DNA of 64,000 bases from Terriglobia bacterium (GTDB lineage Bacteria; Acidobacteriota; Terriglobia; Terriglobales; Acidobacteriaceae), in NCBI GenBank assembly GCA_020072585.1, contig JAIQGL010000001.1:124001-188000 (forward strand). The letters are read 5' to 3'. The notes under the pieces were generated by a model, which ran no database searches, was not told where the DNA came from, and was given only the letters and a program-made list of their open reading frames with translations. The position numbers and the translations under genes were made by a program. Each line of letters opens with the position of its first letter. Positions within the stretch are counted from its first letter, which is position 1. Positions 4,203 to 58,833 of this stretch are shown here, piece after piece.

Positions 4203-5249
4203 ATGTCCCTGACCAAACAACAAGCGCTTGACCTGTTCCGCTCGGACGATCTGATCGGCCTGGGTATGGAAGCCGATTCGCTCCGCCGCAAGCTCCATCC
4301 TGAAGGCGTGGCCACTTACATCATCGATCGCAACATTAATTACACGAATTTCTGCACGGAGTACTGCACTTTTTGCGCTTTCTACGCTCCGGTGAAAGGT
4401 CCCGGTCGCGCCAAGGGCTACGTGCTGGAGATGGAGACGATCTACGAGAAGATCCGCGAGACCGTGGACCTGGGCGGTACCGGCGTGCTCATGCAGGGCG
4501 GCCTGCATCCTGATTTGAAGATCGAGTGGTATGAGGCGATGCTCAGCGGCATCAAGCAGCGCTTTCCGCAGGTCCATCTGCACTGTTTTTCTGCTTCAGA
4601 GATCATCCACTTTGCCGATGTGAGCGGGCTTTCGATTGAAGAAACTATCCAGCGGCTGCGCGATGCCGGCTTGGATTCCATTCCCGGCGGCGGCGCGGAA
4701 ATTCTGGATGATGAAGTCCGTTACAAAATCGCCCGCCTCAAATGCCTGACCGATGACTGGCTCAATGTGCATCGCACCGCGCATAAGCTTGGAATGCGTA
4801 CCACTGCCACCATGATGTTCGGCGTAGGCGAAACGTTTGAGCACCGCATCAACCACTTCCAGCGCGTCTTTGATCTGCAGGAAGAGACCGGCGGATTCAC
4901 TGCGTTTATCCCCTGGAGCTTCCAGCCGGGGAACACCGCTCTGGGCGGACGCCATTGGGAAGAGGCCACGGCGGTGGAATATTTGAAAGTGCTCGCTATC
5001 GCGCGGCTTTATCTTTCGAATTTTGAAAACGTGCAGTCCAGCTGGGTCACGCAGGGTCTGAAAGTCTGCCAGCTTGGCCTGCGTTTCGGCGGCAATGACG
5101 TTGGCTCTGTGATGCTGGAAGAAAACGTTGTACGCTCCGCCGGCGTTGCCAACTGCACTACGGAAGAAGAGCTGCGCCGCATGATTCGCGATGCCGGTTT
5201 CGTTCCCAAGCGGCGCGATACGCTCTACCGGCAGCTGTTTTTGAACTAG
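4203..5249 (+). CDS. mqnC: Dehypoxanthine futalosine cyclase (MqnC), radical SAM
   Basis: This 348-residue radical-SAM enzyme of the futalosine menaquinone pathway closes dehypoxanthine futalosine to cyclic dehypoxanthine futalosine. The cluster-binding cysteines are C51, C55 and C58 (C-x3-C-x2-C, in NYTNFCTEYCTFCAFY). Family landmarks follow: LMQGGLHPDL, SIPGGGAEIL, IPWSFQPGNT and EENVVRSAG. Its length is normal for the family. mqnD lies 2.7 kb downstream on the same strand, separated by unrelated genes. The ATG at 4203 lacks a Shine-Dalgarno but has a TATAAA 12 bases upstream. Confidence 0.93.
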   Translation: MSLTKQQALDLFRSDDLIGLGMEADSLRRKLHPEGVATYIIDRNINYTNFCTEYCTFCAFYAPVKGPGRAKGYVLEMETIYEKIRETVDLGGTGVLMQGGLHPDLKIEWYEAMLSGIKQRFPQVHLHCFSASEIIHFADVSGLSIEETIQRLRDAGLDSIPGGGAEILDDEVRYKIARLKCLTDDWLNVHRTAHKLGMRTTATMMFGVGETFEHRINHFQRVFDLQEETGGFTAFIPWSFQPGNTALGGRHWEEATAVEYLKVLAIARLYLSNFENVQSSWVTQGLKVCQLGLRFGGNDVGSVMLEENVVRSAGVANCTTEEELRRMIRDAGFVPKRRDTLYRQLFLN

Positions 5250-17251: not shown

Positions 17252-17794
17252 TTACGCTATATAAAATACGTCCTTACACCAATTGGCGGGATTGTCCCGA
17301 ATATATTCCCGGACCGCCTTCAACGAATTCTTTCCCCGAATGATTCGATCATGAAACCGCGGTTGCCACTCGAATTCCACGTTCTTTGCTACGCACCATC
17401 GTGTAACTGCGGACTTGAATGAGCCCACTACCGCTCCCAGAGAATTGACCTTGGGACGAACGTCATTCAGCTCCGCAACCCGCTTGAATTTCTCCCGCTT
17501 TCGCAGCTCCGGCAGCCGATCTGGGCCGCCGATGATCACGATAGCGTGCATATGGTTCGGCATGACCACAAATTCATCAACATCTACGTGCTGGTGATGT
17601 TGCGGAACTTCTTTCCAGCAAGCGTCGACGTATTCACCGATGGGTGAAAGATTCACGGTTGCATTCGCCACCTGGCCGAAATGAGGCTTTCTCCCCTGCG
17701 TACAGATCGTGACAAAATACCAGCCCGGCAGCGTGTAATCCCAACCGGGTTTACGCGCGGATTCAATCCTGTACTTCTCACGAAATAGTGTCAT
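17252..17794 (-). CDS. REP-associated tyrosine transposase 1 (Y1/HUH)
   Basis: This 180-residue protein belongs to the Y1/HUH transposase superfamily (RAYT, also called TnpA-REP). The HxH motif is H81 and H83 (VVMPNHMHAIVIIG), and the catalytic tyrosine is probably Y164 (KAVREYIRDNPANW). The N-terminal GWYFVTICTQGR is typical of the family. It would nick single-stranded DNA at REP hairpins; RAYTs are usually single-copy and domesticated rather than freely mobile. Its ATG overlaps the last codon of the broken GNAT frame (ATGA), and its stop is 2 bases from the left palindrome. Confidence 0.92.
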   Translation of the reverse strand: MTLFREKYRIESARKPGWDYTLPGWYFVTICTQGRKPHFGQVANATVNLSPIGEYVDACWKEVPQHHQHVDVDEFVVMPNHMHAIVIIGGPDRLPELRKREKFKRVAELNDVRPKVNSLGAVVGSFKSAVTRWCVAKNVEFEWQPRFHDRIIRGKNSLKAVREYIRDNPANWCKDVFYIA

Positions 17795-54459: not shown

Positions 54460-55035
54460 TTATCCCGTCTGTTTTTTGGGGACGAGATAAGCGCCGTAGT
54501 AGTATTCGCGGCAAAAAGGACAGATCGTGTGGGTTACATCCCGCCGGGGGTGCTCTACATAAGCCGGAATCCAGTCCCAGGTCTCTGGCTCATCCATACG
54601 GAGTGTGCGGCGGCAATTGGCGCACATGTGGATCAGACCAAGCTGGCAGCGGTAACGGGCATCATTCGGTTCGCAGACCGCTCGCGTGTGAGGATGCACA
54701 ATCACCAGCGAATTCATGACCACAAAACCGCAGCCCGGCCGCAGCGGATAGACCTGCATCCGGTAAACGCGAAAGGCCTGCGCGGAAGAGCACTCGTAGT
54801 CAAGTGACTGCATGCGTCCCAGGGCGCGGGCCCGCTGGAAGATCTCTTTATAAATCAGGCGCAGGTCGTCAGGCACGAACTGAAGAAAGGGCTTGTGCAG
54901 TATCGAGGCCGCCAGTGCGTTTGGTCCTTCATTTTCCAGGGCAAACCGGTCCCATGCTGAGTTGCAGTAGCAGATATCGAGCGACTCAGTCAGGGCAAAA
55001 CACGCATGCGGACTGCTTTCCACGGCCGCCGGCAT
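54460..55035 (-). CDS. PAS-like domain protein with a zinc-ribbon end
   Basis: This is a 191-residue protein from ATG 55035; the frame is open to 55149 and the start is uncertain. The first two-thirds look like a PAS fold (FALTESLDICYCNSAWDRFA, FLQFVPDDLRLIYKEIFQRA, YECSSAQAFRVYRMQVYPLR). The end has two CxxC pairs (HMCANCRRTL and HTICPFCREY) typical of a zinc ribbon. It could be a cytoplasmic sensor or adaptor. Its output partner is not adjacent and no DNA-binding domain is recognised. Confidence 0.65.
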   Translation of the reverse strand: MPAAVESSPHACFALTESLDICYCNSAWDRFALENEGPNALAASILHKPFLQFVPDDLRLIYKEIFQRARALGRMQSLDYECSSAQAFRVYRMQVYPLRPGCGFVVMNSLVIVHPHTRAVCEPNDARYRCQLGLIHMCANCRRTLRMDEPETWDWIPAYVEHPRRDVTHTICPFCREYYYGAYLVPKKQTG

Positions 55036-55314
55036 TTTGTCAGGCAGCTTTGCCGGAGTAACACCTGTGTACACGTTTGCAATCTTATAGGAAGGCGCGG
55101 ATTTAAGGACGTGACTTCTGTCACAGGGGGCGGCGCCTCTGTGCCGCACCTACGGCGCTTGTAAGTTCTTTGAATACACTTACCCAGGGCTCACGCTCCT
55201 GGGCTCAATAATTCCGCCCTTTCGGGCTGGATCAGACGGGAGAGATAGATCCTTAAAATCGCACCCTTCGCAAAAAACAAAGGCGCGAAGGATGGGGCAC
55301 GCCGTCGGTTTTAA
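55036..55314. other. Repeat-rich spacer at the edge of the Lamassu-like island
   Basis: It contains palindromes: CCCAGGGCTCACGCTCCTGGG (around 55182), a CCGCCCTTTCGGGC word and a CCTTCGC ... GCGAAGG hairpin near 55267-55291. The first two resemble dispersed intergenic elements. The last could end the minus-strand ATPase transcript, although no T tract is present. Confidence 0.5.
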
Positions 55315-57030
55315 TCACACTTGAAGCGGTTTCAGTGAAGCTTGTAAAACTTTGTTTTGAAATGGCTCGATTTCCGCCTTTACGGATTGATAATCTGCCT
55401 TCCGCAAGACATTGAATTTTTCGGTCAGCTCAATTCTTGTCCCGCTAAAGTCCACACCCAAGTCGTCAACAATTCCGAGCAACAATTGGGACTGGTTTGG
55501 CCGTTGATCTCTCATCAGTTCCAGCATGGCTCTCAGATTGTTTTTGTCTTGTTCCTGTTGTTGAGGAGAGTCGATCACAATTGGACAGAACGCCGCTTCT
55601 GAATACTTGTAAGCCGTATGTAGAATCGCAAAAAAATACGCAAGCAATGCACGAGGCTTGGCGCTGCCCATTTTCGCAAGGTCAGCCGTAACAGCTTTGT
55701 ACGCTTCCGGGCCGACGTTGCTGACATGTAGCTTCGTCAAGAAAGATTGCAGGTGATTCGCATAGTAGCCGATGATCTCCTTTTTTCTCGCTTTGTCATC
55801 AAGAGACTTCAATTCCTTTGATATTTCATTTTGCTTAAGCAAGTATTTCGCCAACTCTTCATTTTCTTCGGCAATCGTTTTGTCGAATTCTGCTGCTGCT
55901 TCTCTCCTACCTACATTCAGCGTCACGGTTCTCAGAGTAACTTCCTCTTTCTTGGTGTTCAGTAGGTCTGAGATGATCGCTGCGGAGGCGGCATTCTCTT
56001 TGAATTGCTCACGCGCTTTTGCGATCTTCGTTTCAGTCTTCGCTATTTCACTTTCCATGTCAGCAAGGAATTCTGAGAGTTGATCTTGATCTTTCGCCAG
56101 CTCAAAACGCTCAACGAACGAATTGGCGTATTCCTGCCCGCAACTTGGACATTCGACGTACGCTGCTGAGTCTACTGCCAGTTCGTAATCGGCCTGCAAC
56201 TCAGACAAAGCCGATTGAACTACCTGTCGTTGATTCAGAAGTTGATTTCGGTATTCCCCAAGCTCAGACAGCTGAGACTTCAATTCATTTTCAGCTTTTA
56301 GAAGTGCTTGAGCCTCATGCACCAGCTTGTCGATCTCCGCTTCGAATGCGTGCGTATCGACATCGAACTCGGAATTTGAGAACTGAGTTCTAAGACGCGA
56401 CAGAACGCCTTTAATCACCTTCACTCTAGCCTCGATTTCAGCTATTGTGGTTTTCAGCGCAGCGCGTTTCGTTGAAAGCTCATAAAATCTATTCGGCCGA
56501 ATTCCTGTGTGATATTCGGCCATGTTCTTCTTGTAGTCTTTGATGTAGCCCAGATTCGCAAACCCAGCCCAGCTAGAGTCCCAGCTCTTGTCTTGATCGA
56601 TGTAAAACGGCAAAAAGAAAAAAGCAGGAGGAGGCGGTGTAATCTTGACGTTCGTTTTAGTGATTAGCGAAATGTGAAAATTCACCAGGTTGGCTAGGTA
56701 TGGCCCCACCTCTCTGCTGACTGACGTGAATGTGTACAGTAACGCGCCGTTCTCATCGAAGACGGCATACGCTTGAAGGTGGCGGAAAAAATGGAGAATC
56801 ACACCTGCGACTTCCACCTTGAGCAGAGAGAACACACCTGCGCTTTTCCATTCGGGAGAGACTTTGGCGGGATCAGCACCTAGTGTTTGGAAAACCGACT
56901 TTATGATCGATGATTTGCCCGTCTCATTGCTGCCCGTGAGGACCGTCGCTTGCGGGTGAAACGTTATTTTTCTGGCCTTCTGTTCCTTTTCCGATAGGAG
57001 CAGCAGTTCGTGCAGCTTGAAGTGGTTCAC
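55315..57030 (-). CDS. Rad50/SMC-like ATPase of a Lamassu-like module (LmuB-like)
   Basis: This is a 571-residue protein from GTG 57030 (AAAGGAAG just upstream). The N-terminal Walker A is GSNETGKS (33-40). Long coiled-coil arms (about 185-290 and 310-420) surround a zinc-hook-like CPSCGQ (C294, C297). The C-terminal ATPase half has AKMGSAKPRALLAYFFAILH in place of the ABC signature and a Walker B-like FCPIVIDSP at about D487, where the catalytic Glu expected after Asp is absent. FFLPFYIDQDKSWDSSW is a distinctive patch. This agrees with the SMC-type ATPase of Lamassu/ABC-3C-like phage-defence modules. It lies 41 bases after the DUF4297 gene. Base use is more A+T-rich than neighbours. Confidence 0.72.
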   Translation of the reverse strand: MNHFKLHELLLLSEKEQKARKITFHPQATVLTGSNETGKSSIIKSVFQTLGADPAKVSPEWKSAGVFSLLKVEVAGVILHFFRHLQAYAVFDENGALLYTFTSVSREVGPYLANLVNFHISLITKTNVKITPPPPAFFFLPFYIDQDKSWDSSWAGFANLGYIKDYKKNMAEYHTGIRPNRFYELSTKRAALKTTIAEIEARVKVIKGVLSRLRTQFSNSEFDVDTHAFEAEIDKLVHEAQALLKAENELKSQLSELGEYRNQLLNQRQVVQSALSELQADYELAVDSAAYVECPSCGQEYANSFVERFELAKDQDQLSEFLADMESEIAKTETKIAKAREQFKENAASAAIISDLLNTKKEEVTLRTVTLNVGRREAAAEFDKTIAEENEELAKYLLKQNEISKELKSLDDKARKKEIIGYYANHLQSFLTKLHVSNVGPEAYKAVTADLAKMGSAKPRALLAYFFAILHTAYKYSEAAFCPIVIDSPQQQEQDKNNLRAMLELMRDQRPNQSQLLLGIVDDLGVDFSGTRIELTEKFNVLRKADYQSVKAEIEPFQNKVLQASLKPLQV

Positions 57031-57071
57031 GCTTCCTTTGCCTGTCCTTCCGAATGCTCCGGATTAGTTGT

Positions 57072-58189
57072 CTAAATGTTCCCTGTTTCATGAAAACTGA
57101 TCATCGCCAGAACGAGGATGTAATCCTCTGGGAATTGAATAATATCAAAGCCGGTCACTTTCAGATCTTCTAACACCAGTTTTGAGAGCTCGTAAACTGA
57201 AGACGTCGTCGCCTGTTCTGCCAATCTGGCGGTTGTCTTTGCTACACGCGAGTGCATTTCTGAGATTATGGTGCTCTGCTTGTTCGTTCGATCAACTTGA
57301 ACTTGACGGAACGCGAAACGCATTTTCACTCTGACTCCGATGGGCAAGCCTGCACCTTCCATGTCAGACTCAATCTTCTCGAGAGTTTTCTTGGGGTTAC
57401 TGATCGCGCCCGTACGCTCGAGAATTTTTTGAAAATCCGCTCTGGAAATTCCTTTCAACTTGGCCAACTCACTAAAGTCGGATGCTTGGACGATCGTGTC
57501 GTTTTTAATCCTAATCTCACCGATGAGCAACCTGTAAATTGTGGGAACGGGCATCAGATGGTCAGGGAGAATCTCATCGAGGAAATCAACAAGCTTGCCT
57601 CTTGCGTGCTCAGAGTGTTTCTCAATGTGTAAATCTGCAATGTCAAGAAATAGCACTCCATTGAGCTCAGGAGTGCCTGAGAGTGACAGCTCTTTTTCAA
57701 GAGCTTTCTCGATTTTCTCTCGATCATCAGGGTGAATCGCGACATAAGCGATGGACTTTTTCGCTGTAGTTGATTGTTTGCCGTCCGTAAGTGCTATGGC
57801 AAAGGGTGCATTAGAAACAACGGCAAGCCGCTTTGCATCTGCTTTGAATTTGAGTTTGTTGCTATACAGCTTTCCAAGAATCGAGTTCTTCGGCCCCGCT
57901 TTGCCTTTTTGCCGCTTGATCAACGCGCCTGTTGTCCACGACGTTTTGCCTTTACCATACAGCGTCTTGACCTGGTAGAACTTTGCAGTTTTCGGGTCAG
58001 ATGGAGCATCAAAAACGACCACGTCTTCGTGCATGTCCAGGATAAGTAAGTAGTCATCAGTTTAGCGAGATGGAGCTTTAAAAGCAGGACGAGGCTCCAG
58101 TCCTTCTGATATTCGAATCGATCAGACGCGAGCGGGCCGGAGGTCTCGCGCGGAGGCTCGTTGACAAAGAGGTCTTCTAGATCGCCCAT
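57072..58189 (-). pseudogene. DUF4297/Cap4-type nuclease effector (LmuA-like), frame-shifted
   Basis: The main frame (57072-58034) opens at MHEDVVVFDAPSDPKTAKFY and contains the nuclease core ED ... QVKT of the PD-(D/E)xK fold, then a long helical region. The conserved N terminus is in another frame: ATG 58189 encodes NEPPRETSGPLASDRFEYQK and LVLLLKLH, the usual DUF4297 start, while TDDYLLILD leading into MHED is in the main frame, separated by a TAA at 58062-58064. A one-base loss near 58055-58066 explains this. Joined, the protein would be about 372 residues. Either the gene is inactive, a shortened form is made from ATG 58034, or the frame change is programmed (no slippery heptamer is evident). 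Confidence 0.7.
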
Positions 58190-58833
58190 GCTTTCTTAGG
58201 ATCAGATAATACATCGGAAAGCGACAAGGGAAGGAGATTGCGTCCTGTCGCCCGGTTTATGAGAAAGGTTCAGCATTGGCTAGGCCCAGGGTGAGGGTCT
58301 CGAGAGAATTCCCTGATGCGGCGTGGTGGCGCATATGGTGTCGGTGTTCTTCGACTCCCCATCAGTCCCCGCTCCCCTTCGCAAGCTCAGGGTCCAGGGT
58401 CCCTCGGGGTCGCTCCCAATGACAGGGGTAGAGGGGCATCTTAACGCCTCCGGCGTTGAGGAGCGAAAGGAATTGTATTGGAATAGGGGCATCGTCCTCT
58501 TTCGCTATTGATTCGATAAAGAGAATCCGCTAAAGTGTCGCAGCGCCGAGATGCGCAAGGTCTTTGACAACTAGCAATCAGCACTTAGCCAATCAGCAGT
58601 CAGCCAAACCGGGAGTCTTTGCGACCCCTCTGCTGATTGGGATTGGGATTGGGATTGGGTCACCCTTGGGTCACCCAAGCGTCTCCCAAGGGACACGCAA
58701 GGGCCACGCAGGCGTCACGCAAGCGTCGAATTTGTAGAAGTGTCTTTGTTTGCAACAAAAGCTGGAAAAATACCGGGGTGGGGGTCTGGGTAGATTGCCA
58801 AAATCGCCGGAAATGCCAAAATTGAGGGGCGGT
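58190..58833. other. Non-coding region with tandem and inverted repeats
   Basis: About 640 bases separate the Lamassu-like module from the CCA-adding enzyme. It contains GC-rich intergenic words around 58375-58470 (CCCTCGGGGTCGCTCCC and neighbours), AGCAAT/TTAGCC-type words at 58570-58605 similar to those near 20.2 kb, and the tandem array at 58635-58676. No gene is supported; short open frames are broken and biased to repeats. Confidence 0.55.
58635..58676 (+). repeat. Tandem GATTGG array and doubled 11-mer
   Basis: GATTGG occurs four times in tandem (58635-58658) and runs into two direct copies of TTGGGTCACCC (58655-58665 and 58666-58676). Further degenerate CACGCAAG words follow to about 58735. 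Confidence 0.85.

What the first reader, a model, noticed from the sequence alone, without database searches (positions are those of the whole stretch)
55315..58189. Lamassu-like defence module in A+T-richer DNA
A DUF4297/Cap4-type nuclease gene is followed after 41 bases by a Rad50/SMC-like ATPase with Walker A, coiled coils and a CxxC hook. This pairing is the core of Lamassu (LmuA/LmuB). Base composition and codon use are visibly unlike the GC-rich surroundings, and the module is edged by repeat-rich spacers, suggesting transfer. The ATPase lacks an obvious Glu after its Walker B Asp and has GSAKPRA in place of a standard ABC signature, so it may represent a divergent subgroup.
Basis: partly seen in the sequence, partly recalled or inferred. 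Interest (0 to 1): 0.75.

Follow-up and report, generated by a model that had tools for sequence, protein, structure and literature searches.

The report
Ordinary two-gene Lamassu, nuclease frame broken
This is a standard two-gene bacterial anti-phage defence system of the known Lamassu type I kind, probably acquired from outside, whose nuclease gene is interrupted by a frame break in this assembly, so it is probably not working here and is not a new kind of system.

Summary
ORF 55315-57030 (-) is a full-length LmuB: PADLOC PDLC00249, 631 bits over positions 3-563 of 565. Its AlphaFold model's best PDB match is the LmuAB-DNA complex 9ux7 (Foldseek E 5e-24). The gene 41 bases upstream is a Cap4/DUF4297 LmuA (PF14130, PDLC00238), split over two reading frames. 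The pair is fixed in relatives: 79 of the 80 LmuB loci kept from genome contigs have LmuA directly upstream; the exception starts at a contig edge. The features called divergent are the family norm: the residue after the Walker B Asp is S, A, T or N, never Glu, in 89 of 89 LmuB, and G-[SN]-x-x-[PS]-R occurs in 86 of 89. A 2023 review already describes loss of that Glu in Lamassu. G+C of 47% against 56%, no match in 60 relatives and a match in only 2 of 396 phylum genomes (this one included) support transfer. The repeat-rich spacers belong to the site: a sister species has them around a BrnTA pair instead. Verdict: new member of a known kind, probably inactive as assembled.

The parts
55315..57030 (-). 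lmuB: SMC/Rad50-like ATPase, 571 aa, Walker A GSNETGKSS, coiled coils with CPSCG hook, signature GSAKPRA, Walker B VIDSP
   Evidence: PADLOC PDLC00249 LmuB E 5.5e-190; solved LmuB 9ux7_A by sequence E 5.3e-15; AlphaFold pLDDT 88.7, Foldseek best 9ux7_A E 5.1e-24
57072..58034 (-). lmuA, main reading frame: Cap4/DUF4297 nuclease core with D...QxK and the C-terminal helical part
   Evidence: PF14130 83.5 bits over cut-off 26.2; PDLC00238 LmuA E 3.2e-65; AlphaFold pLDDT 89.0
57920..58189 (-). ORF that opens with the N-terminal ~43 residues of lmuA in a different frame; the frame break lies near 58050-58065
   Evidence: PDLC00238: residues 3-43 match profile 4-44, E 4.4e-11; profile positions 4-42 and 44-359 in two frames; 1 TAA inside the hit
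58190..58833 (.). repeat-rich spacer between cca and the module; 58273-58812 is shared with the sister species G006, so it belongs to the site
   Evidence: 46 other matches in the genome; 78.7% identity to L119
55139..55296 (.). left spacer shared with G006; left limit of the exchanged segment (its first bases overlap the start of ORF 54460-55149)
   Evidence: 88.7% to L119 over 159 columns; 13 other matches of window 55050-55330 in the genome

Best explanation
A laterally acquired two-gene (type I) Lamassu defence system with a Cap4-nuclease effector. In an intact copy, LmuB (a Rad50/SMC-like dimer with ATP-binding heads and a zinc-hook-type tip) is the DNA sensor and holds LmuA inactive. On binding foreign or aberrant DNA it frees LmuA, which oligomerises and cuts DNA, aborting the infection. 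Here lmuA is split by a frame break between its N-terminal ~43 residues and the catalytic core, so as assembled the system most likely does not work: a recently broken copy or an assembly error. Shown here: family, gene order, co-conservation, foreign composition and patchy distribution, frame break. Inferred from published Lamassu work: sensing, sequestration, oligomerisation, abortive cleavage.
For: LmuB and LmuA profiles; PDB sequence and fold matches to LmuB of the LmuAB-DNA complex 9ux7; LmuA upstream in 79 of the 80 genome-contig loci kept out of 222 found; LmuA D4, Q21 and K23 invariant in 35 sequences; 84 of 86 relatives carry an LmuA open frame reaching the N-terminus, the other two begin at contig ends; no match in the 60 other relatives, a match in 2 of 396 phylum genomes including this one; G+C and GC3. 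Mechanism: PMC10586767, sections 9 and 10 read; PMC12409362, passages on two-gene type I and on the LmuA homo-tetramer.
Against: LmuA's predicted fold has no PDB match at E <= 0.001; the best, a HerA-DUF4297 chain, has E 0.051, and no Lamassu LmuA chain came up by sequence. No function was tested. The closest LmuB is only 38-39% identical. In one search at most three candidates per listed genome were scored, so misses are possible. A sequencing error in lmuA cannot be excluded.
Confidence: 0.94

Rival explanations
1. The lmuA frame break is a sequencing or assembly error and the system is intact and active in the living cell.
For: The residues conserved in relatives are present across the two frames; the two frames abut almost without loss (profile 42/44); lmuB is fully open.
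Against: No reads available. Five of six neighbouring genes scanned match Pfam families in a single frame, and the sixth, without a Pfam match, aligns in one frame with its G006 homologue, so the assembly is not generally error-ridden here.
Confidence: 0.4
2. The two lmuA frames are joined by programmed frameshifting, or the main frame is used alone from its ATG at 58034, giving a shortened effector.
For: The main frame has an ATG at 58034 and keeps the invariant D, Q and K.
Against: All 84 relatives that are not cut by a contig end have one continuous frame; near-invariant E, G, R and Q of the N-terminus would be missing from the shortened product; no slippery heptamer recognised by eye (recalled motif, no tool test).
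Confidence: 0.04
3. Not Lamassu but another ATPase plus Cap4 nuclease pair (HerA-DUF4297 or PtuA-type).
For: Weak PADLOC matches of the window's LmuB to PtuA and JetC and of L012's LmuA to HamA; the best Foldseek hit of LmuA is HerA-DUF4297.
Against: Best LmuB profile 631 bits against 35 bits for the best listed profile of another name (25 of 38 families listed); all 11 families hit by the LmuA main frame are named LmuA or LmuB; the best fold match of the ATPase is LmuB.
Confidence: 0.02

Closest known systems
Lamassu type I (two-gene LmuAB; solved LmuAB-DNA complex 9ux7/9ux8)
   Same: Two genes, effector upstream, LmuB of about 560-570 aa; full-length sequence and fold match of LmuB. The solved LmuB also has Asp-Ser at Walker B (alignment).
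   Different: LmuB 18% identical in the Foldseek alignment; no chain of 9ux7 other than LmuB came up with our LmuA profiles; lmuA frame is broken here. That 9ux7 is a type I system is inferred from its title and from the type I paper cited, which is not held.
Lamassu type II / DdmABC (LmuACB; 9hqu, 9hqx, 9uxh, 9nyg)
   Same: LmuB fold; Cap4 nuclease effector in Vibrio DdmA (PMC12409362 passages).
   Different: No middle gene LmuC/DdmB here: 41 bases between the two genes. The review gives Gln for the Walker B Glu; here it is Ser.
HerA-DUF4297 and Cap4 of CBASS
   Same: Cap4/DUF4297 nuclease domain in LmuA (weak fold match).
   Different: Partner is an SMC-like ATPase, not HerA; the genes beside the pair are cca and an ORF without Pfam match, no cyclase.

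Membership tests
Lamassu | SMC/Rad50-like LmuB with Walker A, coiled coil and C-terminal ATPase half | tested here: met
   PDLC00249 631 bits, positions 3-563 of 565; fold match 9ux7_A
Lamassu | LmuA effector gene directly beside LmuB, co-conserved in other genomes | tested here: met
   79 of 80 genome-contig loci, exception at a contig edge
Lamassu | LmuA effector domain (here Cap4/DUF4297) with its conserved residues | tested here: met
   PF14130 over cut-off; D4, Q21, K23 invariant in 35 sequences. That these are the catalytic residues is recalled PD-(D/E)xK knowledge
Lamassu type I | two genes, no LmuC between them | tested here: met
   41-base gap; two-gene definition from PMC12409362 passages
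Lamassu | Walker B without the catalytic Glu | tested here: met
   VIDSP here; S 60, A 16, T 12, N 1 in 89 LmuB. The review states Glu to Gln in general, so the replacing residue differs from that statement
Lamassu | effector gene in one open reading frame | tested here: not met
   lmuA frame interrupted in this assembly. This lowers the claim of a working Lamassu, not of the kinship
Lamassu | anti-phage or anti-plasmid activity | not testable with these tools
   G-[SN]-x-x-[PS]-R in 86 of 89, D-[SATN]-P in 89 of 89; G455 invariant, S456, P459, R460 at least 90% in 39 LmuB

The most novel reading that the evidence does not exclude
The cca to Beta-lactamase2 interval of this genus is a small exchange slot whose dispersed-repeat spacers let defence and toxin-antitoxin cargo be swapped by recombination: Lamassu in this species, a BrnTA pair at the same place in others.
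Probability: 0.15. Interest if true: 0.35.

Novelty: new member of a known kind. Interest (0 to 1): 0.13.

Why it matters
It adds a long-branched, probably transferred member to a well-described defence family and corrects the idea that its motifs mark a new subgroup. For LmuB of this kind the sample shows a residue other than Glu after the Walker B Asp throughout, which fits the published idea of slow or absent ATP hydrolysis and one-way activation.

Tried and rejected
Divergent-subgroup reading: rejected by motif counts over 89 LmuB, the window's own included. The contig scan used a seed pattern that itself demands S, A or T after the Asp, so the 20 loci found without that pattern were counted apart: none has Glu. 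A first script missed the Walker B motif in two split or short ORFs and the signature in 13; the recount with looser bounds is, where the signature form is missing in 3 (L004, L055, L011). The hook pattern was missing in 3 of 89: L009, and L007 and L084 whose best ORF is only part of a split gene.

Single-sequence scans of genome and viral contigs found no relative; the profile scan did. NCBIfam gave nothing above cut-off. LmuA against the PDB by sequence gave no clear relative: best 8zue Anti-bacteriophage protein A, E 0.0063. Tree: quick method, 86 LmuB; L001 and L003 (copies of the window), L007, L068 and L084 dropped beforehand; the window branch is long and its place unsure; it does not fall beside the Acidobacteriota row L061 or the phylum mate L004. 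Defence-island idea: of 11 neighbours scanned with PADLOC, 10 had no match and an ABC transporter matched two ATPase models, taken as a cross-match; the rest of the window was only listed. A guess that ORF 17252-17794 is a repeat-associated transposase had no Pfam support. I first took the G002 interval to be empty; its ORF list and Pfam show a BrnTA pair there. Papers PMC12663957 and 10.1038/s41594-025-01677-4 are not held; they are known to me only through citations in passages of PMC12799240, PMC12904381 and PMC12409362. No literature search was made for the slot idea.

Full report
Observation. On the minus strand the window carries a 571-codon ATPase gene (55315-57030) and, 41 bases upstream of it, a Cap4/DUF4297 nuclease gene. 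The nuclease is split: an N-terminal piece starting at 58189 and the main frame 57072-58034 match LmuA profile positions 4-42 and 44-359 in different frames, and the genome search counts one TAA inside the hit. The residues conserved in relatives are there: E, G, R and Q of the N-terminus in the first piece, D4, Q21 and K23 in the second.

Identity. PADLOC names both genes: LmuB PDLC00249 at 631 bits over almost all of the profile, LmuA PDLC00238 at 219 and 41 bits for the two pieces. Pfam gives PF14130 above its cut-off for the main frame. phmmer finds the solved LmuB 9ux7 at E 5.3e-15, and profiles find it at E 3e-42 and 2e-40. The AlphaFold model of LmuB (pLDDT 88.7, 39-row alignment) has as its first PDB match the LmuAB-DNA complex 9ux7_A (E 5.1e-24, TM-score 0.53, rmsd 37.7), followed by LmuB of the LmuACB complexes 9hqx, 9uxh and 9hqu. 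I did not examine why the TM-score is not higher; a different bend of the coiled coils is a guess. The LmuA model (pLDDT 89.0) has only weak matches, the best being HerA-DUF4297 (E 0.051).

Co-conservation. A profile scan of genome contigs found 222 LmuB relatives; the best 80 were kept. In 79 of the 80 an LmuA open frame lies upstream on the same strand; in the other, L068, LmuB begins at the contig edge. Plasmid and phage records add six pairs among seven fetched (L005-L009 and L011; L010 lies at the start of its record), and the phylum mate L004 another. Of 86 relatives with LmuA, 84 have one open frame reaching profile position 25 or less; in L022 and L090 the frame begins 81 and 149 bases from a contig end. 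Among these 87 copies the frame break is peculiar to the window.

The motifs are not divergent. In 89 LmuB including the window's, the residue after the Walker B Asp is S 60, A 16, T 12, N 1. As one scan seed demanded S, A or T, the 20 loci found without it were checked apart: none has Glu. G-[SN]-x-x-[PS]-R is in 86 of 89; G455 is invariant and S456, P459 and R460 are at least 90% conserved in 39 LmuB. A 2023 review (PMC10586767, sections 9 and 10 read) says that LmuB generally has Gln in place of the Walker B Glu and may hydrolyse ATP poorly, that many but not all LmuB have a CPxCG-type hook, and that LmuC is missing in some systems. The residue here (Ser) is thus not the Gln of that statement, but the solved LmuB of 9ux7 also has Asp-Ser. 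A 2025 review (PMC12409362, passages) calls the original two-gene systems Lamassu type I and reports in an addendum that activation frees LmuA, which forms a homo-tetramer.

Origin. G+C is 0.473 against a window mean of 0.561 (sd 0.021), and GC3 is low. LmuB gave no match in the 60 other relatives searched, and the LmuB family matched in 2 of 396 genomes drawn from the phylum, this one included, with at most three candidates scored in each genome listed. The nearest LmuB are 38-39% identical, in Bacillota and Bacteroidota. Transfer is well supported; the donor is not identifiable. No call names the window's organism.

The site. The spacers are not module edges. The sister species G006 (L119) keeps both, 78.7% and 88.7% identical, around 1.2 kb that carries BrnT and BrnA in place of the 3.0 kb with Lamassu (window about 55297-58272). 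Regions beyond cca were taken from seven of the eight sister genomes of the genus. Where both cca and the Beta-lactamase2 gene were seen, the interval holds Lamassu here, BrnTA in G006, a BrnA and a split BrnT in G002 (L123), and two other genes in G007 (L120). The 1.2 kb of G006 matches G002 at 77.7% over 543 columns and does not match the window. Against a simple slot: only G006 of the seven shares the spacers; G001 and G008 (L121, L122) have other genes after cca and no Beta-lactamase2 in the stretch read; L118 and L124 end 0.2 and 1.3 kb past cca. The right spacer has 46 further matches in the genome.

Mechanism and verdict. By family knowledge LmuB senses aberrant DNA and releases LmuA, whose Cap4 domain then cuts DNA and aborts infection. 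None of this was tested here. With lmuA interrupted, the copy is most likely inactive unless the break is a sequence error.

Noticed in passing
window 58190-58833 and 55050-55330: Intergenic repeats: the right spacer has 46 other matches in this genome (72-100% identity, the highest ones short), the left 13 others; a dispersed repeat family.
   Followed up: partly
L119:2387-2915: In sister species G006 the same slot between the same spacers holds a BrnT/BrnA toxin-antitoxin pair (PF04365, PF14384).
   Followed up: yes
L123:1523-2089: In sister species G002 a BrnA gene and a BrnT gene that appears split over two frames lie between cca and Beta-lactamase2.
   Followed up: partly
L093:151-1113: A TIR-domain gene (PF13676) lies about 0.4 kb from another copy of the repeat; ten repeat loci were looked at by eye and only this gene was scanned.
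   Followed up: partly
window 54460-55149: A 229-aa protein without Pfam or PADLOC match, conserved at 71% identity in G006 beside the slot.
   Followed up: no
L122:3161-4393: HEPN/RES-domain gene (PF18870, PF08808) near cca in G008; 4483-4610 just after it matches the G006 slot at 70% over 128 columns.
   Followed up: no
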